Source: Rhodobacterales bacterium (GTDB taxonomy: Bacteria > Pseudomonadota > Alphaproteobacteria > Rhodobacterales > Rhodobacteraceae). From it: a stretch of DNA of 41,760 nucleotides. Of this stretch, positions 6,155 through 26,274 are shown one piece after another; positions within the stretch are counted from its first letter, which is position 1; each line of letters starts with the position of its first letter. The notes beneath the pieces are model-generated. The model made no database searches, had not been told where the DNA came from, and saw only the letters and a program-made list of their open reading frames with translations. Where the stretch lies: contig JANYFE010000046.1 of the NCBI GenBank assembly GCA_025362795.1, positions 1 to 41,760 on the forward strand, in the 5' to 3' direction. Both the position numbers and the translations under genes were made by a program.

Positions 6155-7375
6155 TCAGGCCGACAGGAATTCGTCCCATTTGGTCATCAGCAGGTCGTAC
6201 TTGTCCGGCCACTGGTGCCAGTAGGCGACGTTCGCCGCACGGGTCGCCAGGGAACCGCCGTCGCGCAGGTCGCCTTCCTTGATGCCGCGGTCTTCCGCGC
6301 CAACCCACGGTGCACCTTCGTACCAGAAGGCATACTTTTCCGGGGCCATCACAGCTTTGACCTTGTCATTGGGCGAGTAGTAGCCCTGTTCGGACACAGC
6401 CACAGCCGGGCCACCCGACAGCCAGAAATCGGCGTAAGCCGTCACTGCGTCGAGGTTCGGTGAGGATTTCAGCGCCGAAACACCGATCGACCAACCGCGA
6501 TAGCCGCTTTTCATGGTGGCGTAAGAGCATTGGACTCCCTGAGCCTTGACGGCCATGACAGCCGGCTGCCATGCGTCTGCAAGGATCATTTCGCCCGAAG
6601 CCATCAGGTTGACCAATTCGCCGAAATCACCCCAGAGAGCGCGGAATTGGCCCTCTTTTTTCTTCGAGATCAGGAACTTGGCTGCTTCTTCAATCGCCGC
6701 CGCATCCGGGTTGCCCGGGTTCTTGACTTCCAGAAGACCCAGTTCGTTCATGGCCAGCACGGCCTGACCGAAGGCGATCAGCGGGTCGACGTTCAGGCCG
6801 GTCTTGCCCTTGAACTTGGGGTCGAACAGCGACGACCACAGCGACGCTTCTTCCGCCGACACAAGGTCGGGGCGGTAGCCGATGGAGTCGAAGTTGTACA
6901 CCGTCGGAACCATGTTCAGCGCGGTCTGGCTCTCGTCGGTCCAGATCTGGCCCACGATCTGCGCGCGGGCTTCCCACTTGTCCGACGCTTTTATGAAGCT
7001 CTCGCCGATGCCGGTCCAGTTGGTCAGATTGGCAGTCGGGATCGGCGACACAAGGCCGGTCTGGGTGATCGACGGCAGACGCTCACCGATGGTTTCCCAG
7101 CAGTCGTAAGCGGTTGAACCCGACAGCAGTTCGGTCTGGGTGTTCGGGAAGATGTCAGCTTTGCCCGAGACCGACTTAACGCCCGAAGCCGCCTTGAAGT
7201 CCGCCAGAATGCGGTCCTGCACGGTCACCGACAGACCAACGGTGCGCAGTTCCTGCGCCGCAAGGTCAGCGGCAAAGGCTTGTTGCGCGCCGAGGAACGG
7301 CAAGCCGCCCGCAGCCAACGCAGCGCCGGTGGTCCCTTTCAGGAACCCGCGGCGGGATAGTGAACTGTGATTCAT
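6155..7375 (-). CDS. periplasmic substrate-binding protein of the ABC transporter, PotD/PotF-like
   Basis: A 406-residue extracellular solute-binding protein of the polyamine/Fe type. The N-terminus has a twin-arginine pattern SRRGFLKGTTGAALAAGG with probable cleavage after AFA near residue 35, so export is by Tat and folding happens in the cytoplasm. The mature domain includes MVPTVYNFDSIGYRPD and a conserved C-terminal APEKYAFWYEGAPW. The last segment is shared with the signal-less paralogue at 12955-14196. It captures the substrate and delivers it to the permeases at 8894-10624. The ligand cannot be read from sequence; a nitrogenous compound is suggested by context. It lies 44 nt after the SDR gene. 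Confidence 0.9.
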   Translation of the reverse strand: MNHSSLSRRGFLKGTTGAALAAGGLPFLGAQQAFAADLAAQELRTVGLSVTVQDRILADFKAASGVKSVSGKADIFPNTQTELLSGSTAYDCWETIGERLPSITQTGLVSPIPTANLTNWTGIGESFIKASDKWEARAQIVGQIWTDESQTALNMVPTVYNFDSIGYRPDLVSAEEASLWSSLFDPKFKGKTGLNVDPLIAFGQAVLAMNELGLLEVKNPGNPDAAAIEEAAKFLISKKKEGQFRALWGDFGELVNLMASGEMILADAWQPAVMAVKAQGVQCSYATMKSGYRGWSIGVSALKSSPNLDAVTAYADFWLSGGPAVAVSEQGYYSPNDKVKAVMAPEKYAFWYEGAPWVGAEDRGIKEGDLRDGGSLATRAANVAYWHQWPDKYDLLMTKWDEFLSA

Positions 7376-7419: not shown

Positions 7420-8175
7420 TCAGTAGCGCCCCACCAACAGCCCGCCATCGACCACCACCACTTGGCCCGTCATGTAACGGGCCGCGCTGGAGGCGAGAAA
7501 CAGGGCGACATCAGCAATCTCTTCAGGTTGACCGATGCGGCCCATGGGGATGAATTCCCCCGCCTTGTCCGCAGCTTCGGGGCCGAGGGAATGTTCCTTC
7601 GACAAAAGCTGCGCCGTCCGGATGTAGCCTGGCGCGATGCCATTCACCCGGATGCCGTCGCGGGCCAATTCCACCGCAAGGCCGCGCACAAGGCCGACCA
7701 CGCCAGATTTCGCCGCTGAATAATGCACATGTTCATCCCAGCCATAGGCCACGCCCATGATCGAGGACAGGGCCACGACAGCCCCTTTCTTGCGCGCCTT
7801 CATGCCTGCAAGAGCCGGGCGCACGACGCGGAAGATGCCTTTGAGGTCGATCTCAAACGTATGATCCCACTTTTCGTCCGACATCTCGGCCAGTGGTACC
7901 CGGTGCGCGATGCCCGCATTGGCCACAATGACGTCAATGCCGCCATGCCTGGCCTCGACCGCGGCCACAACAGCATTCGCAGCTTCGGTCAAGCGGACGT
8001 CGAGCAGGTGGAATTCCGCCGTGCCGCCATCTGCCGTGATTTCCGCCACGACTGACGTGCATTCGGCGTCCAGAATGTCGGTGGCCACCACATGATAGCC
8101 CGCCTTGGCAAAGGCCTTGGCGGTGGCACGGCCAATGCCGATGCCTGCGCCGGTGATCAGAACGATTTCGGTCAT
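7420..8175 (-). CDS. short-chain dehydrogenase/reductase (first of tandem pair in coordinates)
   Basis: A classical SDR of 251 residues. TGAGIGIG near residue 8 is the nucleotide-binding motif, NAG at the end of beta-4 is in VIVANAGIAH, and YSAAK provides the catalytic Tyr and Lys, preceded by a Ser in VALSSIMG. An acidic residue after beta-2 (ATDILD) favours NAD(H). I chose ATG at 8175, which overlaps the stop of the second SDR as ATGA. The open frame extends far upstream to 8559, but that extension runs antisense to conserved SDR coding and has no homology-like content. The pair looks like an old tandem duplication. Substrate unknown, probably a hydroxy intermediate of the pathway. Confidence 0.9.
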   Translation of the reverse strand: MTEIVLITGAGIGIGRATAKAFAKAGYHVVATDILDAECTSVVAEITADGGTAEFHLLDVRLTEAANAVVAAVEARHGGIDVIVANAGIAHRVPLAEMSDEKWDHTFEIDLKGIFRVVRPALAGMKARKKGAVVALSSIMGVAYGWDEHVHYSAAKSGVVGLVRGLAVELARDGIRVNGIAPGYIRTAQLLSKEHSLGPEAADKAGEFIPMGRIGQPEEIADVALFLASSAARYMTGQVVVVDGGLLVGRY

Positions 8176-8897
8176 AGCATCACATCTCCGGAATTGGGGC
8201 CAAGCGTCTGGCCAACGAACAGTGAGGATTGGGGCGAACACAGAAACGCCACGGTGTTGGCGACTTCTTCGGGCTCGCCAAAGCGGCCCAGCGGCAGTTC
8301 GGCGGCCTTGGCGCGCTGCCAATCTTCTGACAGGCTCCGCACGAGGGGCGTGTTGATCGGCCCCGGCGCCACCGCATTGACCCGCACGCCCTGCGCCGAA
8401 ACTTCGCGCGCCAACGCCTTGGTCAGGCCGATGATCCCGGCCTTGGCGGCGGAATAGTGCACCAGTTCGTTCCCGCCGATCTGGCCCAGTTGCGAGGCGA
8501 TGTTGACAATCACCCCCGATCCGCGCGCCAACATGCCCTGCAGCACGGCATGGGTGCACAGAAACGTGCCGCGCAGATGCACCGCAATCATGCGGTCAAA
8601 ATCCGCAACGGTCAGGTCGGTGAACCGTCCCTGATGCACATGGCCCGCGCAGTTGACCAGATGCGTCACCGGGCCAAACGCCGCCTCTGCCGCAGCGACC
8701 ATGGCCGCCACATCGCCCTCAACCGAAACATCGCCGCCGATGGCCACGGCCTTGGCACCGATCAGGGCTGCCGTGGCCTGCGCCGCCTCGGCCCGAAAAT
8801 CATTGGCCAGCACGTTATAGCCATCCGCCGCCAGCCGCAAAGCAATGGCTTGCCCGATGCCCGACCCTGCGCCTGTGACGATTGCGGTCATGGTCAT
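8172..8897 (-). CDS. short-chain dehydrogenase/reductase (second of tandem pair)
   Basis: A 241-residue SDR with TGAGSGIG at residues 8-15, NCAGHVHQG, a catalytic Ser in VNIASQLG and YSAAKAG. The C-terminus ends in FVGQTLGPNSGD, the usual cofactor/substrate loop (normally GQ.L.vdGG) slightly altered. It is about 10 residues shorter than its neighbour and clearly diverged from it, so the two are unlikely to be redundant. The start overlaps the permease stop by 4 bp (ATGA) and its stop overlaps the next SDR start by 4 bp, so translation is coupled on both sides. SDRs between permease and binding-protein genes are an unusual place within a transporter operon. Confidence 0.9.
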   Translation of the reverse strand: MTMTAIVTGAGSGIGQAIALRLAADGYNVLANDFRAEAAQATAALIGAKAVAIGGDVSVEGDVAAMVAAAEAAFGPVTHLVNCAGHVHQGRFTDLTVADFDRMIAVHLRGTFLCTHAVLQGMLARGSGVIVNIASQLGQIGGNELVHYSAAKAGIIGLTKALAREVSAQGVRVNAVAPGPINTPLVRSLSEDWQRAKAAELPLGRFGEPEEVANTVAFLCSPQSSLFVGQTLGPNSGDVML

Positions 8898-9751
8898 GCG
8901 ATATCCTCCTGCATCGCCAGTTTGCGGGCGCGGCGGACCGACAGGCCCATCAGGATGCCGTAAACCGACAAAAGCGCGAAGGAGAACAGCGTGGTCAACA
9001 CCCCGAAAGCGAAGATATTGGGGTGAATTTCCACGGCAAAGGTGCCGTAGATCGCCAAGGGCAAGGTCTGATCCCCGGACCCGCCGGCGGCGAACAGGGA
9101 CCGCGGGAACTCATCAAGGCTTAGCGTGAAGGCGAACAGCATCGCGGACAACACACCCGGAAAGATCAGCGGGAATGTCACCTTGCGGAACGTGGTCCAC
9201 GGGGTGACGCCCAGCGACCACGACGCTTCTTCGACCGATCCGTCAAAGCGGTTCAGGATCGCCAGCATCACGAGAAAGGCGAAGGGGTAGGTGTAGGCCA
9301 CATGGGTTGCAAACGCAGTGGTGTACCAGTGCCGTTCGATGCCCAAGACGTTGTTGGCCAGCAGTGAGGTGCCAAGCCCGGTCAGCACGCCCGGCACCAT
9401 CATGCCCAAGACGATCAGGTAGAACACAACGCTCGACCCGGTGAACTTGCGCCGGAAGGCCTGCGCAGACATCACCCCCAGCACGGTCGACGTGACCATG
9501 GTCATAAAGGCCAGCACCAGCGACCGGATCAGCGCCTCGCCCACCGGCAACGGGGCTATGCGCGACGGCGGCGTCAGGCCGAAGATCTGCTTGTACCAGT
9601 ACAGCGACCATTCTGTGATCGGGAACTGCGGCCCGCCATCCGGCCCCTGCTGGAACGACAGGATCGTCAGCACGAAAAACGGACCATAGAGGAACAGCAG
9701 GAACGCCACCACATAGACGGCGAGAATCGGTTTGAGGACACGCGATTCCAT
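8894..9751 (-). CDS. ABC transporter permease, PotC-like
   Basis: A 285-residue inner-membrane subunit with about six hydrophobic helices, starting with PILAVYVVAFLLFLYGPFFV. The EAA-type coupling loop that contacts the ATPase is EEASWSLGVTPWTTFRKVTF followed by PLIFPG. The sequence fits the PotC/YdcV side of polyamine-type importers. It is 3 nt downstream of its partner permease and overlaps the following SDR by 4 bp. Together they form the membrane channel used by the binding protein at 6155-7375. Confidence 0.92.
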   Translation of the reverse strand: MESRVLKPILAVYVVAFLLFLYGPFFVLTILSFQQGPDGGPQFPITEWSLYWYKQIFGLTPPSRIAPLPVGEALIRSLVLAFMTMVTSTVLGVMSAQAFRRKFTGSSVVFYLIVLGMMVPGVLTGLGTSLLANNVLGIERHWYTTAFATHVAYTYPFAFLVMLAILNRFDGSVEEASWSLGVTPWTTFRKVTFPLIFPGVLSAMLFAFTLSLDEFPRSLFAAGGSGDQTLPLAIYGTFAVEIHPNIFAFGVLTTLFSFALLSVYGILMGLSVRRARKLAMQEDIA

Positions 9752-9754
9752 CGC

Positions 9755-10624
9755 TTACAACTCCTGCTTCAGGTCAACGATCCGCAGGAAGGCAGCAATC
9801 ACCATGCCCATGACCACCGTCAGAATCACGCCCGAGACCGACGCCATCGCCCATTTGAGCGAGCCGACCTGCGTGACGATGATGTTGCCCAACAGGTTCA
9901 CCTTGCGGCCCGACAGCGCGCCGGAAGTGGCGAATTCGCCCAGAACCATGACGCTGACGAAGATCGCGCCAACGACGACACCCGGCAGGCTGAGCGGAAA
10001 GATGATTTTCCAGAAGATCCGGCCAAAGCCTGCGCCCAGATCCCGTGCCGCCTCGATGATGTTGCGGTCGATGCGTCCCAGCATGAAGGCAATCGGGCCG
10101 ACCATGAACACGCAGTAAATCTGGGTCATCCCGATGATCACCGACAATTCGGTGAACAGCAAAACCTCGATCGGATGGCTGATGACGTTCAGTTTCAGCA
10201 GGATGATGTTGATCACCCCCTCTTTGCCCAGCATCGGACGCCAGGCCAGAACGCGGATCAGGAACGATGTCCAGAACGGGATCACGCAGATCACCAGCAG
10301 CACGGTCGACAGGGTTTTCGATTTCACGAACAGCCCGACGAACAGCGCAGTCGGATAGCCAATGGCAAAGGTTGCAGCCAGCACGATCAGCCAGATGCGG
10401 ATCGTGGTCCACAAGGCCCCGATATAGGTGTCTGACGCGAAGAACTGCTTCCAGCTGGCCAAGGTCGGCGTCGGTGAGATGTTGAAGGTGGTCTGCGTCC
10501 AGAACGAGACATAGACGATCATGGCAATCGGCACGATCATGAACAAGGCCATCCAGACAATGCCCGGAAGGATCAGCCAGGTCGGGCCAAGGCGGCGCTT
10601 GCGGGCCACGGTTGCGTCGGTCAT
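9755..10624 (-). CDS. ABC transporter permease, PotB-like
   Basis: A 289-residue membrane subunit. It begins with a basic cytoplasmic stretch (VARKRRLGPTW) and then hydrophobic helices such as LILPGIVWMALFMIVPIAMI. The coupling loop is EAARDLGAGFGRIFWKIIFP. The pattern is that of PotB/YdcU. The start codon overlaps the stop of the upstream ATPase gene as TGATG at 10622-10626, which indicates translational coupling. It pairs with the permease at 8894-9751. Confidence 0.92.
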   Translation of the reverse strand: MTDATVARKRRLGPTWLILPGIVWMALFMIVPIAMIVYVSFWTQTTFNISPTPTLASWKQFFASDTYIGALWTTIRIWLIVLAATFAIGYPTALFVGLFVKSKTLSTVLLVICVIPFWTSFLIRVLAWRPMLGKEGVINIILLKLNVISHPIEVLLFTELSVIIGMTQIYCVFMVGPIAFMLGRIDRNIIEAARDLGAGFGRIFWKIIFPLSLPGVVVGAIFVSVMVLGEFATSGALSGRKVNLLGNIIVTQVGSLKWAMASVSGVILTVVMGMVIAAFLRIVDLKQEL

Positions 10625-11703
10625 CAGGTTGCCTCCCGACCAAAAACGATGGCCTGCTCCGGGTTCCAGGTCAGCAGATAGTCCTGTCGCGCCACATAGA
10701 TTTCAGGCGCGCCCAAGCTGAGGTGGTGCTCTACCTCGACGACCTTGCCGTCTGACGTTTCAAAGAAGTTCATGACCGAGGACCCAAGATATTCGCTGGC
10801 GATGTAAGTGGCCTTCAACGCGGGGCCGCTGACGGTGGCGGTCAGCGGAAGCACGTTCACGCGATCATAGCGGATGGCGTAGACATCCTGCGGCGCGCGG
10901 ACGGCATGTGGGCTTGCCACGGTGCCAAAGGGGCCAGTGAACTTGCCGGCGGTCAAAGTGCCGTCAAACAGGTTGAAGCGGTTCAGGAAATGCGCAACCG
11001 CCGGGCTGGACGGGGCCGAATAGACATCATCCGGCGTGCCAGCCTGAATGATCCGACCGCGGTCCAGCACAACGATGCGGTCACCCATCGCGAGGGCTTC
11101 GGTTTCACTGCCGGTGACGTGCAGGAAGGTTACGCCCATGCGTTCGCGGATGGCGCGCAATTCATTCCGCATCCGTCCGCGCAGGTTGGCGTCAAGCGCG
11201 CCCAGCGGTTCATCCAGCAGCACCAGTTTGGGCTGCATCACCAGCGTGCGCGCCAAGGCAACCCGTTGACGCTGGCCGCCAGAAATCTGCTCAACGCCGC
11301 GGTCTTCCAGGCCCGACAGGCCGACCATGTCGATCATTGCCTGACAGCGCTGATCAATCTCAGCCGCGGGAACGGCAACACCGCCGTTCATCATCCCGAA
11401 GGCCACGTTCTTTTTGACCGTCAGATGCGGAAACAGGGCGAAGTTTTGAAAGACAAAGCCGATGCCCCGTTCATGCGCGGGCAATCCGGTGATGTCGCGC
11501 CCCTGAAAGACGACCCGACCCACGTCCGGCACTTCGAACCCGGCGATCACGCGCAGCAACGTCGTCTTGCCCGAACCCGAGGGCCCCAGCAGCGACACAT
11601 ATTCGTTCACGCCCGCCTCAAGCGTGACGCTATCGAGGGCTTTCACGCCCCCGTAGCTTTTCGACACGCCGTCGATCCGAAAGATTGCCGCTCCAGTTGT
11701 CAT
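10624..11703 (-). CDS. ABC transporter ATPase, PotA-like, with altered H-loop
   Basis: A 359-residue ATPase of the polyamine-type importer. Walker A GPSGSGKT is at 40-47, signature ISGGQRQR at 140-147 and Walker B KLVLLDEP near 159-166. The H-loop, normally VTHDQxEA, reads VTGSETEA, so the switch histidine is Gly198 (codon 11110-11112, GGC). A TOBE-type C-terminus is present. Together with the intact ATPase at 4990-6108 this suggests a heterodimer with one degenerate ATP site. I chose ATG at 11703 because homology starts there; an in-frame ATG at 11748 lacks a ribosome site and adds a basic, cysteine-containing stretch. First gene of operon A. Confidence 0.9.
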   Translation of the reverse strand: MTTGAAIFRIDGVSKSYGGVKALDSVTLEAGVNEYVSLLGPSGSGKTTLLRVIAGFEVPDVGRVVFQGRDITGLPAHERGIGFVFQNFALFPHLTVKKNVAFGMMNGGVAVPAAEIDQRCQAMIDMVGLSGLEDRGVEQISGGQRQRVALARTLVMQPKLVLLDEPLGALDANLRGRMRNELRAIRERMGVTFLHVTGSETEALAMGDRIVVLDRGRIIQAGTPDDVYSAPSSPAVAHFLNRFNLFDGTLTAGKFTGPFGTVASPHAVRAPQDVYAIRYDRVNVLPLTATVSGPALKATYIASEYLGSSVMNFFETSDGKVVEVEHHLSLGAPEIYVARQDYLLTWNPEQAIVFGREAT

Positions 11704-11769
11704 CCGCCCCGTCACGGTGCTGCGCAAATTTTTGCAGCCCGCCCCCATTCTATTCAGCCATTCGTGGAC

Positions 11770-11792: not shown

Positions 11793-11819
11793 ACGGTCCT
11801 TTTCACAAACTGCACTTCG

Positions 11820-11849
11820 TATAAAACAGCGGTTTTATGCTTCTGTCAA
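11820..11849 (-). promoter_or_regulatory. predicted sigma-70-type promoter of operon A
   Basis: The -35 hexamer is TTGACA (11844-11849) and the -10 is TTTTAT or TTTATA (11820-11826), with a 17 or 18 nt spacer, read on the minus strand. A transcript would start near 11813 and have a leader of about 110 nt before the ATG at 11703. It is the clearest promoter in the window and separates operon A from the Hyu/Pxp operon upstream. The call is based on consensus match only. Confidence 0.6.
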
Positions 11850-11971: not shown

Positions 11972-12958
11972 TTACTGCGCGCTAAGATACGGCGCGATTC
12001 TGACAGTTTCGCTGATCACAGCGACGATTTTCATGCGGGCCAAATTCTTGCGGGCCATGATGTGCAAGTGGTCGCGCAGGTATTCAGCCGCTGAATCAAT
12101 CGGATGCCGCGCGATCAAGTCGAAAAGTGTCCGATATTGGTCCAGCGCGATCTCATCCTCGGGCAGGCCAAGGCCGGTCAGTGCGCGGTTGACCGACGTC
12201 AGAAGCATCTGGTTGTTCTGGATCATCGCAACCAACGCGGTGTTCGGTGCCTGCGCAATGCAATGCTCCATCAAGGCATCTTCAAGGTCTTCCGGCGTCA
12301 GGCCTGGATCGGCGCCGATTCTGTCGCGGAAATCTTCGATCTGGCTGTAGTCGATGTGCGGGGCGGCCAACCGCAGGGCCACGGGCTCGACAATGGCGCG
12401 AAGCTCGAACTTTTCGCGCAGGGTGCGCGCGGTCAGGGGGCCGGCGATCCAGTGGGAACTGGCATTCTTGCGGATCAGGCCGCGTTCCTGAAGGCGCGAC
12501 AGCACATCGCGGACCACCGTGCGGCTGACGGCCAGATAGTCGGCAAGCTCGGTTTCAACGATGCGAAATTCGCCAAAGACCTGACAGGAAGCGACCTGTT
12601 CTTCGACCTCGTCATAAAAGTGCTTCCAGGTGCCGCGCATCTGCAGGGCGGCGTCCACCTGCTGCGGGATGTCGAGATCGAATTCGCCGATGTCGCGCCG
12701 CAGGGGAGCAACGCCCTGACCTGCAGCGCCAACCAGATAGCCCCGTCCGTCAAACCGATGCACCAGACCTTCGGCTGACAGCATACGCAAGGCGGCTTGC
12801 ACGGGCATCCGGCTGGTTTGCATCAGGGCCGCAATCGGGCCTTCCAGCAACACCAGACCTTCGGGCAGGACGCCGCTGATGATATTGCTGCGCAAGACCT
12901 GCGTGATCAGCCTATACCGGGGTTCCTGCGAAAGCGGCTTGTTGGGCCGCGCCATCAT
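11972..12958 (-). CDS. GntR/FadR-type regulator with two winged-helix domains
   Basis: A 328-residue regulator. A first GntR winged helix spans about residues 14-77 (LRSNIISGVLPEG ... MPVQAALRMLSAEGLV). A second GntR-like winged helix spans about 115-177 (FRIVETELADYLAVSRTVVR, DVLSRLQERGLIRK). An FCD-type all-helical effector domain follows to the end (ELRAIVEPVALRLAAPH, MEHCIAQAPN). Usual FadR/FCD proteins have one winged helix and about 230-250 residues. The start is in ATGATG, where the TGA stop of the preceding binding-protein-like gene overlaps (12955-12957), so the two are translationally coupled. It probably controls this operon and the transporter operon whose promoter begins just downstream. 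Confidence 0.85.
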   Translation of the reverse strand: MMARPNKPLSQEPRYRLITQVLRSNIISGVLPEGLVLLEGPIAALMQTSRMPVQAALRMLSAEGLVHRFDGRGYLVGAAGQGVAPLRRDIGEFDLDIPQQVDAALQMRGTWKHFYDEVEEQVASCQVFGEFRIVETELADYLAVSRTVVRDVLSRLQERGLIRKNASSHWIAGPLTARTLREKFELRAIVEPVALRLAAPHIDYSQIEDFRDRIGADPGLTPEDLEDALMEHCIAQAPNTALVAMIQNNQMLLTSVNRALTGLGLPEDEIALDQYRTLFDLIARHPIDSAAEYLRDHLHIMARKNLARMKIVAVISETVRIAPYLSAQ

Positions 12959-14196
12959 TTCTGCACCTCGTTCACACGGCCAATAAAGCGATGCCAAGCG
13001 CGTGTGGCGTAATTGTACTCTTCCATGACGGTATTCCACACCGCAATGCGGTTTGCACGGTCGTGATAAGTCCCGCCTGCCCGCCGGGCACCTTGCTTGA
13101 CGACGACCATGCCCGATGGCCCCAGCAGATCCCGCGCCGCCGCCGCGCCTTCATACCAATAAGCCCATTCCTCTGGGGCAAGCGTTGATTTAGTGCTCTC
13201 AGGGGCGGACATGTAGTAGCCCTGCCGGGCCATTACAGCCCCCGCATAGCCATCAAGCCACCAGTTGAGGTATTCATATCCCATGTCCAGCCGGGCGCCC
13301 TCTAGCTGGCGCGACAGACTCGCACCGCCATGCCATGCTCGATAGCCTTCGATGGGGGCGGATTCGACGAAGGTTTCTGCCATCTTGCCTATGTTCCCAT
13401 AGACCGGCGACCACATGCTTTGCACCGAAACCCGGTCGTCATGCAGCTGGCGAGCCGCTTGTTCGCCGGTGCGCCAACTGCCGCAGAAATAACCTTGACG
13501 GCACCGGTCTTCCAAAAGGGCCATCAACGCGTCGATTTCCGCGGTGGTCATGTTGCCGATATCGGCAAACCGTAATTCTCCGGCAGCTTCTGCTGCAAGG
13601 GCCGCGTCAAAGATGCCGATGGCAGGCTCATCCACCAGCGCGATGCGGCCCTTGGCGCGGCGGTCCAACAGCCAAGCCCAACTGGGGCGCTCCAGGTCGC
13701 CGTCGCCAAAGATGCGGGTGTCGAAGCCGAAACTGTCCATGTTGTGAACGGTCGGCAGCATGGAAATGTGACGCCCTTGCTTTGGCCCCAAAAACCCGCC
13801 GGGCTGGACGTAGAGCTTGCGTACCGGCGCATCGCCATGGCCGCGCCACGCGTATTTACTGATGCCGCCTTCCTTGGACAGATCGGTGATCTTGCCCCAA
13901 TCCGCGATGCGGTGGGTGTCTATCGGTTGCAAGGCGCCCCAGAACCACACTATATCCAGGTTGTGGAAGCACTGCTCGTAGATGTCGTAGCCTTCCGGCT
14001 CCATCGCGGACTTGCGCTGACAAGCGATGAAATCCAGCAGTTCATATGCCACATCAAAGCCAAGATCCGCCTGCGCCCGTTCCTGCACCTCTTTCAGAAG
14101 GGTGATCGACGTGCCACGCACGCGCAACCGCCGCCGTTCGGTATGCGGCGGGGCGGCAAGGTCTGGCGTCGTGTTGGGTTGGTCTTGCAGCGCCAA
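12955..14196 (-). CDS. cytoplasmic paralogue of the PotD-like solute-binding protein, no signal peptide
   Basis: A 413-residue protein with the fold-typical segments of polyamine-type binding proteins. MLPTVHNMDSFGFDTRI and LAPEEWAYWYEGAAA match MVPTVYNFDSIGY and MAPEKYAFWYEGAPW of the periplasmic protein at 6155-7375. It lacks a Sec, Tat or lipoprotein leader; homology begins near RRRLRVRGTSIT. I favour TTG at 14196, which has AGAGAGGA just upstream (about 5 nt spacer). A GTG at 14265 overlaps the pxpC stop as GTGA but has no ribosome site, and would not add a signal peptide either. Its stop overlaps the start of the GntR gene. I infer an intracellular ligand sensor or co-regulator for that GntR protein. 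A decayed exported protein is the alternative, but the intact frame argues against it. Confidence 0.8.
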   Translation of the reverse strand: MALQDQPNTTPDLAAPPHTERRRLRVRGTSITLLKEVQERAQADLGFDVAYELLDFIACQRKSAMEPEGYDIYEQCFHNLDIVWFWGALQPIDTHRIADWGKITDLSKEGGISKYAWRGHGDAPVRKLYVQPGGFLGPKQGRHISMLPTVHNMDSFGFDTRIFGDGDLERPSWAWLLDRRAKGRIALVDEPAIGIFDAALAAEAAGELRFADIGNMTTAEIDALMALLEDRCRQGYFCGSWRTGEQAARQLHDDRVSVQSMWSPVYGNIGKMAETFVESAPIEGYRAWHGGASLSRQLEGARLDMGYEYLNWWLDGYAGAVMARQGYYMSAPESTKSTLAPEEWAYWYEGAAAARDLLGPSGMVVVKQGARRAGGTYHDRANRIAVWNTVMEEYNYATRAWHRFIGRVNEVQK

Positions 14197-14261: not shown

Positions 14262-15233
14262 TCACGCCAAATACGCGGCAATAGCATGCATGGTCTTACG
14301 GCGGTCTGCCCGGGCTTGCAGCGCCTGTTCCATCGTCACCTTGACAAACCGCGTCGGCACGTTCGGCTGCAATTGACCAATCAGGTCCATATCCGCTGAG
14401 ACGACTGTGCCGATCATCATATAGCCCCCACCCGACACCGCGTCACGGTGCAAGACAATTGGTTCGGTGCCGGACGGCACCTGAACCGAGCCATACGGAT
14501 AGCAGGCGTCCACGATGTTCGACGGGTCAGACCCCGCACCAAAGGGCGGCCTGCGCGGCATAAAGTCCAGCGGGCGCCCGGCCTTGAAGCGATACCCGAT
14601 GCGGTCCGCCTCGGGTGCAACTTTCCAGGTATCTTCAAAGAAGGTCTTGCCTGCTTGTTCGGTGATCCTATGCCAATACAGCCCCGGCAGCATCCGCAGT
14701 TCCGCAGGCGCCCCTGGCGCACGGCGCAGCGCCTCGGGCACCGCACGACCCTCCGCCGCGAAAGCACCCTGCCCCACCGGCAGCACATCGCCCGCCGCCA
14801 GCTTGCGGCCTTCAAACCCGCCCAAAGCGCCAAGCGCATAGGTCGAGCGCGAGCCCAGCACCATCGGCACATCAATGCCGCCCGACACCGCGATATAGCC
14901 GCGCGCACCCTTTTTCAGGAAGCCAAAGCTGAGGACTTGCCCTTTCTTAACGGTAAAAGCGGTCCAACCTGCTTGCTCGACGCCATCAACCTTCGGCGGC
15001 AGATCGGCCCCGGTCACGGCGACGGTGGTGTCTGCGCTAAACTCCAGCTCGGGCCCCATGAACACCGCTTCCAGAACCGCCGCGCTCGCGTCATTGCCGA
15101 CCAGCAGGTTTGCCGTCGCCAAAGACAGCATGTCCATCCCGCCCGAAGTCGGGATGCCGATGTGGTAATAGCCGGAGCGACCAAGGTCTTGCACCGTGGT
15201 CGATAGGCCCGGTTTGATGACTTTAATGGCCAT
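14262..15233 (-). CDS. pxpC: 5-oxoprolinase subunit PxpC / KipA-type carboxyltransferase domain
   Basis: A 323-residue protein of the KipA/AHS2 family. KPGLSTTVQDLGRSGYYHIG at residues 6-25, then IPTSGGMDMLSLATANLLVG and LEAVFMGPELEF, are the family hallmarks. In E. coli PxpC (YbgK) is part of ATP-dependent 5-oxoprolinase PxpABC; in urea carboxylase the same domain is half of the carboxyltransferase. It overlaps pxpB by 11 bp. Because biotin carboxylase and carrier genes are in the same operon, a biotin-dependent carboxyltransferase role is as plausible here as the oxoprolinase role. Confidence 0.88.
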   Translation of the reverse strand: MAIKVIKPGLSTTVQDLGRSGYYHIGIPTSGGMDMLSLATANLLVGNDASAAVLEAVFMGPELEFSADTTVAVTGADLPPKVDGVEQAGWTAFTVKKGQVLSFGFLKKGARGYIAVSGGIDVPMVLGSRSTYALGALGGFEGRKLAAGDVLPVGQGAFAAEGRAVPEALRRAPGAPAELRMLPGLYWHRITEQAGKTFFEDTWKVAPEADRIGYRFKAGRPLDFMPRRPPFGAGSDPSNIVDACYPYGSVQVPSGTEPIVLHRDAVSGGGYMMIGTVVSADMDLIGQLQPNVPTRFVKVTMEQALQARADRRKTMHAIAAYLA

Positions 15234-16098
15234 TGAGAGCCGCCATCACGCGGGCGTTGGTGCCGTCGATGTCCTTTTGGAATTCCTCCAGCGAGAAGGT
15301 CACCGGGGCGATGCGGGGCTGCCAGCGGCCTGCGTCCACCTCAGCCACGGTATGATCATATTCCTCGCGGCCGATGGGCTTCCACTTCACGATGTCGCCA
15401 GGTTTGAACAGGCACATGAAGTCGCGCAGGTAGGTGGTGGTCTGATTCGGGTCATAGATCGGCATCGGGGTGATGCCGAACATCTGATAGCCGCCCGCAC
15501 CGCGCACGGAATAGATGCAGGCAAAGCAACCACCGTGACCCACGGTCAGGCGCGGCGTATCGGTGCGCGGGCGCAAGTATTTCGGCGACTGGATTTGGCG
15601 ATCCCGGTCAACCATCTGGTAAAGGAACGGCAGCCCCGCCACGAAGCCCACCATCGACACGAACCACGGCGCGCCGGAATGCGCCTTGATAAAGCCGTCG
15701 ATGCCGTCAAGGTGGTTGATCCGCGCCGTGTATTCGATATCGGTCGAAGTTGGGTCCTGATGCCGTTCGCGGAACCGCTGCCCAGTCTCATGCGTCCACG
15801 GGTCGTTGTAATAGACCGGCACTTCGATGATCCGGGTGTTGAGGCTGGAGGGTGCCGATTGCGCCACTGCTTCCAACGCCTGCAACTGGCGCATCATCTC
15901 ATCGGGGGCGATCACGTCAGGATCAAAGCGCACCTGAAACGAGGCGTTGGCCGGGCAGATCTCGGTCACGCCCGTGATCTTGGCATCGCGCAGGGCGTTG
16001 GTGATCGACATGCCCTTGAAGAAGGCGTCCAGCGACATCTCCTCGCTGCATTCCACGAAGATATGTTCGTCACCGCCAAAGGAATATCTAGTTGTCAT
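15223..16098 (-). CDS. pxpB: 5-oxoprolinase subunit PxpB / KipI-type carboxyltransferase domain
   Basis: A 291-residue KipI/AHS1-family protein. It contains RIIEVPVYYNDPW, VGFVAGLPFLYQM (family G-F-x-x-G-x-P-F/Y-L) and SVRGAGGYQMFGITPMPIYD, the typical C-terminal glycine-rich motif. It is longer than E. coli PxpB (about 220), with an extended C-terminus. The middle motif departs from the usual GFxPGFPYL, resembling the carboxyltransferase-domain branch. It overlaps the biotin carboxylase gene by 4 bp (ATGA) and pxpC by 11 bp, consistent with a stoichiometric complex of the three products. Confidence 0.88.
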   Translation of the reverse strand: MTTRYSFGGDEHIFVECSEEMSLDAFFKGMSITNALRDAKITGVTEICPANASFQVRFDPDVIAPDEMMRQLQALEAVAQSAPSSLNTRIIEVPVYYNDPWTHETGQRFRERHQDPTSTDIEYTARINHLDGIDGFIKAHSGAPWFVSMVGFVAGLPFLYQMVDRDRQIQSPKYLRPRTDTPRLTVGHGGCFACIYSVRGAGGYQMFGITPMPIYDPNQTTTYLRDFMCLFKPGDIVKWKPIGREEYDHTVAEVDAGRWQPRIAPVTFSLEEFQKDIDGTNARVMAALNGH

Positions 16099-17477
16099 AG
16101 GGCTTCACTCTCCTCACCCAACTTGTCCGCATTCTGTTCCAGCCACGGTTCCAGCCAGCGCGTGTGGAACTGCCCGGCTTGCACGCCCGCATCGCGCGCC
16201 AGCGCCTGATGCAGCGGTTTGGTGGTGGGCAACCCGCCGACCTCAAGTTCATCCAGCGCACGGGCCATCCGGGTTATGGCCGCAGCACGGGTTTCATCCC
16301 AGACGATCAGCTTGCCCAGCAGTGAATCATAGAACGGCGGCACGGTGTAACCCTGATACAGCATTGTATCAAACCGCACCCCCGGCCCGCCCGGCACTTT
16401 CAGACTGGTGATCGTGCCCGGTCCGGGTTTGAAGCCCTGCGCCGGGTCTTCCGCACAAATCCGCACCTCGATAGCGTGGCCATTCAGGCGGACTTGGCCT
16501 TGAGTAAACCGCAACGGCTCCCCGCCCGCGATACGCAGCATTTCGCGCACAAGGTCGATGCCGGTGATCATCTCTGTCACCGGATGTTCCACCTGAATCC
16601 GCGTGTTCATCTCGATAAAGTAGAAGTGGCCCGAGGCGTCGTCGTACAGATACTCCAGCGTCCCCGCGCCGCGGTAGTTGACCGCCTTGGCCAGCGCAAC
16701 AGCTGAAGCGCACAGCTTTTCCCGCATCGCTTGCGGCAGGGCGGCGGAAGGCGCCTCTTCCCACACCTTCTGGCGGCGGCGCTGCAAGGAACATTCGCGC
16801 TCAAAGCAGTGGATGACATTGGTGCCATCGCCAAGAATCTGAACTTCGATATGGCGGGCGCGCTCAATGACCTTTTCCATATACAGGCCACCGTCGCCAA
16901 AGGCCGCCTTCGCCTCGGCACTGGCCTGCGGCATCAACCGTTCGAATTCTTCCATATCTTGGGCAATGCGAATGCCCCGGCCACCGCCCCCGGCTGCGGC
17001 CTTGATCATCACCGGGAAGCCGATGGCAAGGGCGATGTTGCGGGCGCTACCCAAGTCATCAATGCGCCCGTCAGACCCCGGCACCACCGGCACACCGGCG
17101 GATTCAGCAGCCACACGGGCCGCCACCTTGTCGCCCATCACCCGGATCGAATCACCTTTGGGACCGACCCAGATCAGGCCAGCCGCCTCTACCGCATCGG
17201 CAAAATCGGCGTTTTCGGCCAAAAACCCATAGCCCGGATGCACCGCATCGGCCCCGGTATCCACCGCAGCCTTCAGGATATTGGCGATGTTGAGGTAGGA
17301 TTTCGCGGCCATCGGCGGCCCGATATTGACCGCCTCATCCGCCATCCGCACGGCCAGACTGTCCGCATCCGCCGCCGAATGAACCTGCACTGTCGCAATA
17401 CCCAGTTCCTGCGCCGCGCGGATGATCCGCACGGCGATCTCTCCGCGGTTGGCGATCAGAAGCTTCCGGATCGCCAT
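16095..17477 (-). CDS. biotin carboxylase subunit (AccC-like)
   Basis: A 460-residue ATP-grasp enzyme that carboxylates biotin on a carrier protein with ATP and bicarbonate. Domains follow AccC order: N-terminal LLIANRGEIAVRIIRAAQEL (6-25), PGYGFLAENADFA (81-93), glycine-rich loop MIKAAAGGGGRGIR (157-170), CSLQRRRQKVWEEAPS (229-244) and EMNTRIQVEHPVTE. The catalytic Arg in NTRIQVEHPVTE is present. It is 2 nt after the carrier gene and overlaps pxpB. This is a dedicated second copy type and not the fatty-acid AccC by context, since no AccB or AccA/D is nearby; its acceptor is most likely the PxpB/PxpC pair. Confidence 0.93.
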   Translation of the reverse strand: MAIRKLLIANRGEIAVRIIRAAQELGIATVQVHSAADADSLAVRMADEAVNIGPPMAAKSYLNIANILKAAVDTGADAVHPGYGFLAENADFADAVEAAGLIWVGPKGDSIRVMGDKVAARVAAESAGVPVVPGSDGRIDDLGSARNIALAIGFPVMIKAAAGGGGRGIRIAQDMEEFERLMPQASAEAKAAFGDGGLYMEKVIERARHIEVQILGDGTNVIHCFERECSLQRRRQKVWEEAPSAALPQAMREKLCASAVALAKAVNYRGAGTLEYLYDDASGHFYFIEMNTRIQVEHPVTEMITGIDLVREMLRIAGGEPLRFTQGQVRLNGHAIEVRICAEDPAQGFKPGPGTITSLKVPGGPGVRFDTMLYQGYTVPPFYDSLLGKLIVWDETRAAAITRMARALDELEVGGLPTTKPLHQALARDAGVQAGQFHTRWLEPWLEQNADKLGEESEAL

Positions 17478-17479
17478 GC

Positions 17480-17716
17480 TCAGGCCAGTTCGATCAGCGG
17501 TTGGCCCGCCATCACAGGCTCCTCATCCTCGGCAATAAACGCAACCAGAGTGCCCGCCTGATCTGCCGTCACCTCGTGAAAGGACTTCATCACTTCGATC
17601 AGCCCGATCACATCGCCTACCGCGATGACATCACCCACCACCTTGAAGGCAGGCTGATCCGGCGACGGCCTGCTGTAGAACGTGCCGGGCAGGGGCGAGA
17701 GGATTTGTTTGCTCAT
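17480..17716 (-). CDS. biotin carrier protein (AccB-like lipoyl/biotinyl domain)
   Basis: A 78-residue single-domain carrier. SPLPGTFYSRPSPDQPAF matches the AccB pattern PMVGTFYRSPSPDAKPF. The biotin acceptor is Lys44 in EVMKS (usual EAMKM), in the expected hairpin, with V in place of A and S in place of M. It lacks the N-terminal proline-rich arm of full AccB. The ATG at 17716 starts the homology; the frame is open upstream to 17854 but that part is antisense-like to pxpA. It lies 13 nt after pxpA and 2 nt before the biotin carboxylase. Confidence 0.9.
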   Translation of the reverse strand: MSKQILSPLPGTFYSRPSPDQPAFKVVGDVIAVGDVIGLIEVMKSFHEVTADQAGTLVAFIAEDEEPVMAGQPLIELA

Positions 17717-17729
17717 GGTGCGGACCTTT

Positions 17730-18458
17730 TCAGCGCGTTGCATTAAGATGAGTGATAGCGTCACGCACCGCCTGGGCGAGTGATACGGCATTCGGCGTAT
17801 CCGAATGCACGCAGATCGTATCGGCGCGCACAGCGACGTCAACGCCCCCCACACTGGTGACCTTGCCTTCTTTCATCGCGCGAATGCAGGCGGCAGCGGC
17901 TTTGGCCGCATCCGTCGGCGCATGTTCGCGGGTGATGATCAGGCCGCCGGCATCGTTGTAATCCAGATCCGCGTAGAATTCCGACAGGAAAACATGGCCG
18001 CGCGCCGGATAGATCGTTTCATGCAGGGTGCCAACCATGCCGAACAGCGGCACGTTGAAGATGTCGGCGGCATCGCAGATGGCATGGGCGATATCCTCCA
18101 TCCGGGCGGCCATGCCGTAAAGCGAGCCGTGCGGCTTGATGTGGTTCAACGCCATCCCCTCGGCCTGAAGGAAGCCTTTCAGCGCCCCGATCTGGTAGAT
18201 GATGCAGTTGGTCATCTCTTCCCGCCCGATTTTCATTTCGCGGCGGCCAAAGCCTTGCAGGTCGGGCAAGGACGGATGCGCGCCCACCCTCACGCCATGC
18301 TTTTTGGCCAGTTGCACGGTAGTCCGCATGTGGTTGTAGTCAGAGGCGTGAAAGCCGCAGGCGACGTTGGCCACGTCGATCAGCGGCATCAGGCCCGAAT
18401 CATCCCCGATGCGGTACAGGCCAAAGCTTTCGCCCATGTCGCAGTTTAGCAAAGTCAT
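17730..18458 (-). CDS. pxpA: 5-oxoprolinase subunit PxpA (LamB/YcsF family)
   Basis: A 242-residue TIM-barrel-like protein of the LamB/YcsF family. The start MTLLNCDMGESFGLYRIGDD matches the family LNCDxGEsFG opening, and CGFHASD, GAHPSLPDLQGFGRR and HIKPHGSLYG are the conserved metal/substrate-site motifs. In E. coli PxpA with PxpB/PxpC opens 5-oxoproline using ATP. ATG at 18458 is where homology begins. It sits between hyuA (11 nt) and the biotin carrier (13 nt). Substrate in this system may be another lactam or amide. Confidence 0.93.
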   Translation of the reverse strand: MTLLNCDMGESFGLYRIGDDSGLMPLIDVANVACGFHASDYNHMRTTVQLAKKHGVRVGAHPSLPDLQGFGRREMKIGREEMTNCIIYQIGALKGFLQAEGMALNHIKPHGSLYGMAARMEDIAHAICDAADIFNVPLFGMVGTLHETIYPARGHVFLSEFYADLDYNDAGGLIITREHAPTDAAKAAAACIRAMKEGKVTSVGGVDVAVRADTICVHSDTPNAVSLAQAVRDAITHLNATR

Positions 18459-18469
18459 GACTGTTCCCT

Positions 18470-20551
18470 TCACGCGTCCATCATATTGACAAGGTAGACA
18501 CCGCTCTCGTGCAACTCTGCCTCCCAACCGGGTTCGATGACAAGGGTCGTGGTCACTTCCTCGATCACAGCGGGCCCGGTGATGCGGTCACCCGCCCCCA
18601 GTCGGGCCCCGGCATATACCGGCGCATCCTGCGGGTTGGCAGAGGCGTCGAAGATCATCGGGCGGGTGCCTTCAAGGGCTGAGGCGGCGCCCTTGCCGGG
18701 GGCGACGGTCATGCGGTTCGGGCGATCCACCCGGCCCCAGATGGCGCTTTCGACGTTGACGATCTCGACCACGCTTCGACGTTCGGAATAGGTGTAAAGC
18801 TCTTCATGTCGGGCGTGGAACGCCTCGATCAGTTTGCCAAGGGCGGGTTCGTCGATGGCGAAGGGTTCGATATCCACTGTACATTCATGCACTTGGCCGA
18901 CATACCGCATGTCAAGGCTGCGCCGGATTGAGATGCGGTCCTTGTCAAAGCCATCCCGCGTAAGATCGGCGACGCCACGCGTCTCCAAACCGTTGAACAG
19001 CCCGTCCAGCTTTTGCGCGGCACCTTCCGCATCCAAGCGGACCGGCGCAGGTGCCATGTAGTTGTATTTGACGTCGGAAATGATCTGCCCATAGGCGCAC
19101 AGCCCCGACGCGAGTTTCGAGATCAGCACCCGCCGGATGCCCATTTCCCGCGCCAGCGCCGTGATATGCGCGCCGGTGGCCCCGCCCGCACAGTTCAGCA
19201 CGAAATCGCGCGGGTCATAGCCCCGTTCCACCGAAACGCGGCGGATGGCGTTGACCATGTTGTTGTTGACGATTTTGAACATGCCGTAAGCGGCGTTTTC
19301 CACCGACAGGCCCAACGGATCCGCAATGCGCGCTTTGATGGCAGCCCGCGCCTTTTCGGTGTTCAGCGGCAGACGCCCGCCGATCAGACCATCGGGGTTG
19401 ATATAGCCCAGAACAAGGTTGGCATCCGTCGTCGTCGGTTGGGTGCCGCCCTGATCATAGGACGCGGGTCCCGGTTCAGACCCTGCCGATTGCGGCCCCA
19501 TCTGCATCAGTCCCATAGTGTCGATCCAGCCAATCGAGCCGCCGCCCGCGCCCAAAGTTTCGACTTGAATCATCGGAATGCCGATGCGGTAGCGCAGGAA
19601 GTCGATGTTTTTCGACACATTGGCCCGGCCATCCCGCGTCAGCGTGATGTCAAACGACGTGCCGCCCATATCGACCGTGATGATGTTTTTCATCCCCCAG
19701 GGTTCGGCGATATACAAAGCCGCCTGCGGGGCCGAGGCGGGGCCGGAGTTGATTGCATAGACCGACTGATCGGACACAACCGAACCCAGCGCCAGACCGC
19801 CGTTCGACTGGAAATAACGCACCGGGTTTCTGGACCCAAGGCTGCGGAAATAACCGTCCACCGCCTCGACATAGCGGGTCAGGATCGGGGCGAGGTAGGC
19901 GTTCACGATGGCGGTTGAGGTGCGGGTGTATTCGCGTACCTGTGGGTAAAGCTGGCTGCCCACGGTCAGGCGGACATCCGGCATCATCTCGCGCACAATC
20001 TCGGCGGCGCGCCGTTCGTGTTGGGGGTGCAGCACCGACCAGACGAAGGAAATCGCCACGGACTCAACGCATTCGCGCAGGAAATGGCGGCAGGCCTCGC
20101 GCACGTCGTCTTCGTTCATCGGAGTGTGGACGACCCCGGTGGAGATCACCCGTTCTGACACGCCCCGGCGCAGATAGCGCGGCACCAGCATGGTGGCGGG
20201 CGGATATTCCGGGTCATAGCGATAACCGTCTTCCTTGTGACCCAGGCGGATTTCGATGCTGTCCTCGTGGCCTTTGGTGGCGATCAGGCCTGCTTTCGCG
20301 CCCTTGTGCTGGATCAGCGCGTTCAGGCCAACCGTGGTACCGTTGATGCAAAGGTCGGCGTTTGACACGATCTCTGTCGCCGCAATTCCGGTTTCATCTT
20401 CAATCAGCTTCAGACCGTTGCGGATGGCGAGGGTGGGGTCCTGCGGGGTGGACAGCGCCTTGAAGATGCGCACATCGCCCGTGCGGTCGGCGAGGATGAA
20501 GTCGGTGAAGGTGCCGCCGGCGTCGATGCCCAGACGATATTGGTTTTGCAT
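18470..20551 (-). CDS. hyuA: hydantoinase/oxoprolinase family subunit A (HyuA-like), copy 1
   Basis: A 693-residue ATPase-fold subunit of the HyuA/oxoprolinase/acetone-carboxylase superfamily. GIDAGGTFTDFIL (8-20) and VDMGGTSFDIT are the two phosphate motifs of the ASKHA fold, with GAGGGSIG and the conserved NCAGGATGAHI. The segment DMRYVGQVHECTV resembles the carboxylase-like branch (acetophenone/acetone carboxylase beta-type), whereas copy 2 has the commoner RYVGQGFEL. Such proteins phosphorylate a substrate carbonyl with ATP to drive ring opening or carboxylation. It acts with HyuB encoded 14 nt upstream. Function on lactam, hydantoin or ketone cannot be decided by sequence alone. Confidence 0.88.
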   Translation of the reverse strand: MQNQYRLGIDAGGTFTDFILADRTGDVRIFKALSTPQDPTLAIRNGLKLIEDETGIAATEIVSNADLCINGTTVGLNALIQHKGAKAGLIATKGHEDSIEIRLGHKEDGYRYDPEYPPATMLVPRYLRRGVSERVISTGVVHTPMNEDDVREACRHFLRECVESVAISFVWSVLHPQHERRAAEIVREMMPDVRLTVGSQLYPQVREYTRTSTAIVNAYLAPILTRYVEAVDGYFRSLGSRNPVRYFQSNGGLALGSVVSDQSVYAINSGPASAPQAALYIAEPWGMKNIITVDMGGTSFDITLTRDGRANVSKNIDFLRYRIGIPMIQVETLGAGGGSIGWIDTMGLMQMGPQSAGSEPGPASYDQGGTQPTTTDANLVLGYINPDGLIGGRLPLNTEKARAAIKARIADPLGLSVENAAYGMFKIVNNNMVNAIRRVSVERGYDPRDFVLNCAGGATGAHITALAREMGIRRVLISKLASGLCAYGQIISDVKYNYMAPAPVRLDAEGAAQKLDGLFNGLETRGVADLTRDGFDKDRISIRRSLDMRYVGQVHECTVDIEPFAIDEPALGKLIEAFHARHEELYTYSERRSVVEIVNVESAIWGRVDRPNRMTVAPGKGAASALEGTRPMIFDASANPQDAPVYAGARLGAGDRITGPAVIEEVTTTLVIEPGWEAELHESGVYLVNMMDA

Positions 20552-20565
20552 GGGTTTGGTCCTTT

Positions 20566-22323: not shown

Positions 22324-22539
22324 CGGGCGTTCTCTTTCCAAATGGGGCAGGACACGCCCGTGCAAGCCGCAGGATGCACCTTTTGGCGGCCCCGGTCTTG
22401 CGCCAAAGCGAGCAAGCTTTTGTCAGCCCGCGCACTGAATGGGCCGGGTTTGCGCAAACGCACCTGCCAAACTTCTCCTTGCAATGGGCTTTGGCTTTAC
22501 CCAAAGTTTGCGCAATCAGCTTTGCCCGGGGGCAATCAG
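22324..22539. promoter_or_regulatory. divergent control region between hyuB and the AraC-family gene
   Basis: This 216-bp gap should hold promoters in both directions. GTTTGCGCAAAC (22448-22459) is a perfect 12-bp palindrome and GTTTGCGCAA recurs at 22506-22515; a weaker version, CTTGCGCCAAAG, is at 22397-22408. CTTTGG-ctttac-CCAAAG (22489-22506) is an inverted repeat touching the second copy. Repeated sites of this type are expected for an AraC regulator controlling its neighbours. I see no convincing -35/-10 pair, which fits an activator-dependent promoter. Confidence 0.6.
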
Positions 22540-26271: not shown

Positions 26272-26274
26272 GGC

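What the first reader, a model, noticed from the sequence alone, without database searches (positions are those of the whole stretch)
11972..14196. Signal-less binding-protein paralogue coupled to a double-winged-helix GntR regulator
The gene at 12955-14196 encodes a PotD-type solute-binding protein related to the periplasmic one at 6155-7375, but no start choice gives a signal peptide. Its TGA stop lies inside the ATGATG start of the GntR gene, so the two products are made together. The GntR protein itself has two successive GntR-like winged helices before an FCD-like domain. I infer that the intracellular binding protein reports the imported ligand to the regulator, a sensing layout I do not know as a described one.
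Basis: partly seen in the sequence, partly recalled or inferred. Interest (0 to 1): 0.85.

Follow-up and report, generated by a model that had tools for sequence, protein, structure and literature searches.

The report
Intracellular binding protein partnered with GntR
A protein of the kind that normally catches nutrients outside the cell has lost its export signal, stays inside, and keeps company in many bacteria with one kind of gene-control protein, so it probably tells that regulator whether the nutrient has arrived.

Summary
The gene at 12955-14196 encodes a PotD-fold binding protein without export signal (SBPc); its TGA lies in the ATGATG of a GntR gene with two winged helices before an FCD domain.

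It is no local oddity. Signal-less relatives group on one branch (98/94) among Tat-exported proteins; 0 of 108 rows look Tat-like, against 65 of 66 exported relatives. In the order sample 15 of 16 genomes with signal-less SBPc carry this GntR, none of 276 others does. The pair persists beside different importers: Pot-type ABC, another SBP-ABC operon, MFS without ABC (Klebsiella, Acidiphilium), Dpp-type ABC. In three lineages the genes are adjacent on one strand, in both orders.

Against: in Rhizobium-type clusters SBPc abuts a CobW-type GTPase and GntR lies about 10 kb away; hydrolase and CobW genes often travel along. The first histidine of the FCD ligand site is lost in 85 of 94 SBPc-linked GntR rows and in 0 of 26 unlinked ones, but 9 linked rows keep the whole site. 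No interaction is shown.

Best reading: an intracellular ligand receptor for the GntR regulator (about 0.6). Main rival: a helper of the breakdown pathway.

The parts
12955..14196 (-). SBPc: signal-less PotD/PotF-fold binding protein, 413 aa, TTG start
11972..12958 (-). GntR regulator with two wHTHs and a degenerate FCD domain, 328 aa
12953..12958 (-). overlap: SBPc TGA stop inside GntR ATGATG start
12731..12919 (-). first winged helix (residues 14-76)
12443..12625 (-). second winged helix (residues 112-172)
12017..12430 (-). FCD-type domain (residues 177-314); ligand positions E226, M230, Y275, H297, i.e. two of three His replaced
11807..11822 (.). conserved near-palindrome (AAACTGCACTTCGTAT on +), operator candidate for GntR, 101-116 bases before ATPase 1
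   Evidence: best-scoring site of the whole window
10624..11706 (-). ABC ATPase 1 (first gene of the transport operon)
9755..10624 (-). permease 1
   Evidence: conserved position
8894..9751 (-). permease 2
7420..8897 (-). two SDR-type oxidoreductases
   Evidence: relatives annotated SDR
6155..7375 (-). exported (Tat) SBP of the same operon
4990..6108 (-). ABC ATPase 2
3630..4979 (-). amidase
   Evidence: PRK06102 above cut-off
2448..3626 (-). Old-yellow-enzyme-type oxidoreductase
1557..2426 (-). polysaccharide-deacetylase-family hydrolase (67% to the R. johnstonii relative; extent of the match)
1187..1471 (-). small conserved protein that travels with CobW (34%; extent of the match)
220..1155 (-). 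CobW-type GTPase (32%; extent of the match)
14262..18464 (-). PxpC, PxpB, biotin carboxylase, BCCP, PxpA (oxoprolinase-type, lactam-opening)
18470..22365 (-). hydantoinase/oxoprolinase A and B type proteins (named by eye from the translation)

Best explanation
SBPc is an intracellular ligand receptor that serves the GntR protein. Substrate, probably a cyclic amide, imide or hydantoin-like compound judging by the enzymes around it (inferred), is imported by the ABC system or, in other bacteria, by an MFS carrier. In the cytoplasm SBPc closes on the imported compound, and its closed or open form binds the GntR dimer and changes its grip on the site at 11807-11822, switching the transport and breakdown genes. 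Shown: no export signal; one ancient signal-less group; a conserved partnership with this GntR across changes of transporter and gene order; a conserved operator-like site; loss of the canonical FCD effector site in most of the partner GntRs and in none of the unlinked ones tested; retention of the two positions that hold ligand-stacking tryptophans in PotD. Inferred: the protein-protein contact, the direction of the switch, the ligand.
For: Signal-less: 0 of 108 rows Tat-like versus 65 of 66 exported relatives. Signal-less rows lie on one side of one branch, 98/94 and 100% of bootstrap trees, next to other-class Tat SBPs (100/100, before those were added). Partnership: GntR at E<=1e-40 in 15 of 16 signal-less genomes and 0 of 276 others of the order sample (Fisher 3e-24, not corrected for kinship). 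In 80 named loci: 47 adjacent, 3 divergent in the locus, 25 placed divergent by coordinates, 1 partial at the edge (L145), 3 with GntR elsewhere in the genome or unplaced, 1 without. No GntR relative near any of 66 loci of exported relatives, most with 1.5 kb on each side. Same-strand adjacency in both orders: SBPc>GntR in the window; GntR>SBPc in G099 (10-base gap), a Paracoccus plasmid (8-base overlap) and an A. tumefaciens plasmid beside a Dpp-type ABC and hydantoinases (1-base gap). MFS and no ABC genes in the Klebsiella and Acidiphilium loci. FCD ligand set kept in 26 of 26 unlinked double-wHTH GntRs, first His lost in 85 of 94 linked rows. Pocket: PotD's two stacking Trp align with W262 and W288, invariant in 16 proteins, and its amine-binding Asp with G290 (residue roles in PotD recalled). 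Precedent: spermidine-PotD inhibits potABCD transcription (passage in PMC4951125).
Against: No interaction, ligand or DNA-binding experiment exists, and a complex could not be predicted here. Nine of 94 linked GntR rows keep a complete E-H-H-H site: Klebsiella, Pantoea, Halomonas, three of genus g447, A. tumefaciens, L138 and L139, so loss of the site does not follow from the partnership. In Rhizobium-type, Thioclava, Klebsiella and Pantoea clusters SBPc follows a CobW-type gene, not GntR; a CobW relative was found in 11 and a deacetylase relative in 12 of 19 loci searched, which fits a catabolic role too. G212 keeps SBPc without GntR and without the cluster's Tat SBP. One signal-less group, and linked GntRs compatible with one origin (74/91), mean that the partnership may be one event. 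The places of L280 and L181 in the SBP tree are flagged as unsure. In Pantoea an ABC ATPase and permease pair lies next to GntR on the far side.
Confidence: 0.6

Rival explanations
1. SBPc is a cytoplasmic substrate carrier or enzyme-like helper of the breakdown pathway: it captures the imported compound and hands it to the deacetylase, amidase or oxoprolinase-type enzymes, perhaps with CobW as metal supplier. GntR merely regulates the cluster.
For: SBPc overlaps or follows CobW by a few bases in R. johnstonii, Klebsiella, Pantoea, Thioclava; deacetylase and CobW relatives are in 12 and 11 of 19 loci searched, also in the window; PBP folds have become enzymes elsewhere (recalled).
Against: In the A. 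tumefaciens plasmid locus GntR>SBPc stands with hydantoinases and a Dpp-type transporter, with no deacetylase or CobW relative in 21 kb; same-strand adjacency with GntR occurs in both orders.
Confidence: 0.23
2. SBPc is exported after all, as a folded passenger of the Tat SBP (hitch-hiker), forming a two-protein receptor for the ABC transporter.
For: In 14 of 14 genomes of the order sample with the cluster's Tat SBP, SBPc is present too.
Against: SBPc persists in loci with an MFS importer and no ABC genes and beside a Dpp-type system; Tat use is general in the family and needs no passenger.
Confidence: 0.06
3. SBPc controls transport directly, for example by binding the ATPases or permeases from inside and damping uptake when ligand is plentiful, independent of GntR.
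For: Co-occurrence with two ABC ATPase genes in 13 of 15 SBPc loci of the order sample.
Against: The transporter varies in kind between clusters while GntR does not.
Confidence: 0.06
4. A relic: a duplicated SBP that lost its signal and is on its way out.
For: G212 holds SBPc in what looks like a decayed cluster.
Against: An old group with members in Alpha- and Gammaproteobacteria, intact reading frames, and 87 invariant positions in 16 aligned proteins.
Confidence: 0.02

Closest known systems
PotD of E. coli acting on potABCD transcription (Antognoni et al. 1999, known here only through a passage of PMC4951125)
   Same: A PotD-fold binding protein with bound ligand affects transcription of its own uptake operon.
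   Different: There one exported protein does both jobs; here a separate signal-less paralogue goes with a GntR protein and the exported SBP is another protein.
FadR/VanR-type GntR regulators with FCD domain (PDB 6z74, 7xp1, 3sxy)
   Same: GntR wHTH and FCD fold.
   Different: A second wHTH stands before FCD, and the FCD metal/effector positions are largely replaced in the window protein.
One-component regulators with a PBP-type effector domain, e.g. LacI, AraR (GntR wHTH plus PBP), LysR type (recalled)
   Same: A binding-protein fold senses ligand in the cytoplasm for a DNA-binding domain.
   Different: There the two parts are one chain; here they are two proteins, and the sensor comes from a PotD-type SBP group.
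Periplasmic SBPs that serve as accessory sensors of histidine kinases, e.g. ChvE-VirA, TctC-TctE (recalled)
   Same: A solute-binding protein is a separate ligand receptor for a regulator.
   Different: Those act in the periplasm through a membrane kinase.

Membership tests
PotD/PotF-type solute-binding protein | type II PBP fold of the PotD group | tested here: met
   Foldseek best hits VcPotD1, PotD, YdcS, PotF, E down to 8.7e-15, TMt mostly 0.6-0.8 among the top rows; model mean pLDDT 75.7, residues 107-139 poor
PotD/PotF-type solute-binding protein | export signal (Sec, Tat or lipoprotein) | tested here: not met
PotD/PotF-type solute-binding protein | polyamine-type pocket: stacking Trp plus amine-binding Asp | tested here: inconclusive
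   W262 and W288 invariant, Asp position is G290; PotD residue roles recalled
GntR superfamily, FCD subfamily | N-terminal GntR wHTH | tested here: met
   Pfam GntR E 3.1e-21, two stretches
GntR superfamily, FCD subfamily | FCD all-helical effector domain | tested here: met
   Pfam FCD 28.4 bits, cut-off 24.3; six helices in the model
GntR superfamily, FCD subfamily | metal/effector ligands D/E-H-H-H in FCD | tested here: not met
   E226, M230, Y275, H297
GntR superfamily, FCD subfamily | binds a palindromic operator near its target promoter | tested here: inconclusive
   conserved near-palindrome 11807-11822; binding not testable here
PBP-type one-component regulators (LacI, AraR, LysR) | sensor and DNA-binding domain in one chain | tested here: not met
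   two separate overlapping ORFs
Tat hitch-hiker pairs | signal-less partner encoded with a Tat-bearing partner | tested here: inconclusive
   no SBP or ABC gene annotated beside SBPc in the Klebsiella and Acidiphilium loci, but their whole genomes were not searched

The most novel reading that the evidence does not exclude
A widespread proteobacterial signalling layout: a former exported binding protein, which lost its signal once and stayed inside, is the detachable ligand-sensing subunit of a double-winged-helix GntR regulator. The pair moves between catabolic clusters with quite different transporters, and in most alphaproteobacterial members the regulator's own effector site has decayed because the partner took over.
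Probability: 0.45. Interest if true: 0.85.

Novelty: new variant of a known kind. Interest (0 to 1): 0.72.

Why it matters
Bacterial repressors are usually taken to sense their own ligand. A separate intracellular binding protein that does the sensing would be a new way to build a ligand switch, and it would explain why proteins annotated 'extracellular solute-binding protein' or 'signal peptide prediction' have no export signal. It is directly testable: dozens of such pairs are listed here, among them those of Rhizobium johnstonii 3841 and Sulfitobacter dubius.

Tried and rejected
Papers: five searches on a signal-less SBP or its partner gave no report of a signal-less SBP working with a GntR protein; one on R. 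leguminosarum locus tags (tags guessed) and one on tandem wHTH with FCD returned nothing. They cover open-licence PMC only. PMC13390454, listed, was checked by passages: the signal-less protein there is an alginate lyase. PotD acting on potABCD turned up; passages were seen, no paper was read whole.

Palindromes near 11771-11863 (e.g. ATAAAACAGCGGTTTTAT) were not recovered in most relatives. The motif at 11807-11822 was: 47 of 48 adjacent-type upstream regions score above 8 (training set), and 7 of 28 divergent-type regions, not used for training, against 51 of 2000 random 700-base stretches. Its score against shuffles is inflated by kinship.

The idea that FCD-site loss marks every SBPc-linked GntR was drawn and contradicted; only the one-sided statement is kept. 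The 94 linked rows are 15 of A2, 49 named, 10 further and 20 of the 28 found. The 7 'ctl' rows are the same genes as 7 of the 26 unlinked. Of 12 FCD proteins of the own genome 11 were used and all keep the first two His; L225, short and weak, was dropped before the count and by eye lacks the first His. Two unlinked loci (L236, L237) hold a weak SBP relative, which has a KRREF signal.

Open frames over 700 aa were considered as possible fusions; L181/L210 is a stop-to-stop frame, not a fusion; the others were not examined. A fused-chain fold of SBPc and GntR by a made-up code was considered and not done.

Limits: N-termini were read for 30 of 67 places, 30 of 44 and 30 of 74; the '16 signal-less genomes' of the order sample are all hits of 43% identity or more, and the 32-37% tier was read in 14 places, of which 13 showed a Tat signal (L027 showed none upstream). 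The 66 exported and the 28 signal-less rows outside the 80 named loci were sorted by clade or by eye before the test. The 80 named loci are the best 80 of 490 relatives.

Full report
What is in the window. On the minus strand, oxoprolinase-type genes (HyuA/B, PxpA, BCCP, biotin carboxylase, PxpB, PxpC) are followed by SBPc (12955-14196), GntR (11972-12958), a short gap, then an ABC operon: ATPase1, two permeases, two SDRs, a Tat-signal SBP (6155-7375), ATPase2, amidase, an OYE-type enzyme, a deacetylase-family hydrolase, a small protein and a CobW-type GTPase. SBPc stops inside the GntR start. A search of the own genome with SBPc found only itself and the Tat SBP. SBPc has no Pfam or NCBIfam hit at E<=0.1.

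SBPc has no export signal. From the first in-frame start to the conserved domain the window protein has a maximum 12-residue hydropathy of 0.54. Of 108 signal-less rows (own, 15 from the order sample, 80 named loci, 12 others; several are the same gene seen twice) none has a twin-basic motif followed by a hydrophobic stretch; of 66 loci of exported relatives 65 do, L027 being the miss. Ten of the 108 have a mildly hydrophobic stretch in the maximally extended frame, without the Tat motif. The 80 named loci entered without regard to their N-termini; the other rows were sorted by clade or by eye.

The signal was probably lost once. The rows L280 and L181 are long and their places unsure. The cluster's own Tat SBP is a different group. 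Named members are Rhodobacterales, Hyphomicrobiales, Inquilinus, Acidiphilium, Klebsiella, Pantoea and Halomonas.

The partnership with GntR. In 292 genomes of the order, signal-less SBPc (16 genomes) and GntR at E<=1e-40 (15 genomes) coincide in 15; the exception G212 also lacks the cluster's Tat SBP. None of the other 276 genomes has such a GntR. In 80 named loci, 47 have GntR directly downstream of SBPc, 0-84 bases between the aligned parts; 3 have it divergent in the locus; of the other 30, 29 genomes were searched and 28 have it, and for 25 the coordinates put it divergent from ATPase1, 366-660 bases away and about 10 kb from SBPc. L145 shows a partial GntR at its edge; L163 shows none; L143, L153 and L158 have it elsewhere or unplaced. 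So membership of one cluster is nearly universal in this sample, immediate adjacency is not. Near 66 loci of exported relatives no GntR relative was found, with about 1.5 kb searched on each side of most.

The transporter changes, the pair stays. G099 and Paracoccus sp. AK26 have GntR then SBPc on one strand, divergent from an ABC operon with another SBP (annotated PotD/PotF family in Paracoccus; in G099 its match to the window's Tat SBP begins at residue 4). A. tumefaciens MWF001 has GntR then SBPc one base apart, beside hydantoinases and a Dpp-type ABC system (transporter type judged from gene sizes and order). Klebsiella and Acidiphilium plasmids have GntR, SDRs, deacetylase, CobW and SBPc with an MFS carrier and no ABC genes in the 19-21 kb shown. 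Pantoea is like Klebsiella, but an ABC ATPase and permease pair lies beside GntR on the far side. Genus g447, outside the class, has GntR, amidase, SDRs and SBPc and no relative of the window's ABC genes in its loci; GntR is seen in 3 of 4, the fourth contig ends before it. G416 has SBPc and GntR tail to tail. In R. johnstonii, Thioclava, Klebsiella and Pantoea SBPc follows CobW with a 4-base overlap or a gap of 4-6 bases.

The regulator. GntR has two related winged helices (hhalign 96.4%) and a six-helix FCD. Double-wHTH GntRs are a wider family: 26 such genes lay in loci without a signal-less SBP (the weak SBP hits in L236 and L237 carry a signal). All 26 keep the four FCD ligand positions (EHHH 24, NHHH 2). 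In the window they read E226, M230, Y275, H297. Of 64 linked rows first tested the first His is kept in 0 and the second in 3. Ten further linked GntRs gave 7 with a complete site, and 20 Rhizobium-type ones gave 2, L138 and L139. In all, the first His is lost in 85 of 94 linked rows and in 0 of 26 unlinked. The nine that keep the site include the Gammaproteobacteria, A. tumefaciens and L138, which lies at the base of the main alphaproteobacterial group. If the GntRs followed the SBPc tree, the partnership came first and the site was lost later, at least twice (main group; G099 with Paracoccus). That fits a hand-over of sensing, but does not show it. The linked GntRs are compatible with one origin (74/91, 70% of bootstraps).

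The operator. In 48 GntR-ATPase1 gaps a near-palindrome, ATACGAWRTRCAGTTT or similar on the coding strand, recurs mostly 85-150 bases before ATPase1; in the window it is 11807-11822, the best site of all 41.7 kb. Divergent clusters carry variants: 7 of 28 score above 8, against 51 of 2000 random stretches.

The pocket. The profile of SBPc aligned to PotD places its ligand-stacking tryptophans on W262 and W288, both invariant in 16 proteins, and its amine-binding aspartate on G290 (roles in PotD recalled). The cluster's Tat SBP reads Trp at both places as well (by eye). SBPc probably still binds a flat or ring-shaped ligand, not a polyamine (inference).

How it most likely works. SBPc binds the imported compound inside the cell and alters GntR at the ATPase1 promoter. 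Shown are absence of a signal, ancestry, partnership, operator conservation and decay of the regulator's own site in most linked members. The contact itself, the ligand and the sign of regulation are inferred. The main rival is a catabolic helper, because deacetylase and CobW relatives were found in 12 and 11 of 19 loci (several of the others may end before the place where they could be); the A. tumefaciens case, where of these genes only GntR is shared, and the adjacency with GntR in both orders weigh for the sensor.

What is known. Spermidine-PotD inhibiting potABCD transcription is on record (PMC4951125, passage, citing Antognoni 1999). No paper on a signal-less SBP with a GntR partner was found in five searches of open-licence PMC.

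Noticed in passing
L275, L279, L280 (NZ_CP147639, NZ_OY970452, CP129670); L276: Public annotation names SBPc 'signal peptide prediction', in Paracoccus 'hypothetical protein': a misleading product name for a protein without a signal.
   Followed up: partly
L245-L274, loci from outside the class: A Tat-exported SBP family (LRVLGTHVTLREAIR start) is the closest exported relative of the signal-less group; its substrate is unknown.
   Followed up: partly
window 220-2426: Deacetylase-family hydrolase, a small conserved protein of about 100 aa and a CobW-type GTPase often travel with SBPc; the small protein has no name.
   Followed up: partly
window 24499-28476: A second hydantoinase/oxoprolinase A and B pair besides the one at 18470-22365 (by eye).
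   Followed up: no
window 4990-6108 and 10624-11706: Two different ABC ATPase genes in one Pot-type operon, both present in 13 of 15 SBPc loci of the order sample: possibly a heterodimeric ATPase.
   Followed up: no
L144 (Methylocapsa sp. S129): GntR, amidase, deacetylase, CobW and SBPc without a transporter beside them, at a contig end; the genome has a Tat SBP relative at another place.
   Followed up: partly
L044 (G212): SBPc beside asparaginase with fragments of CobW and deacetylase and a transposase-like gene (by eye): a decayed cluster.
   Followed up: partly
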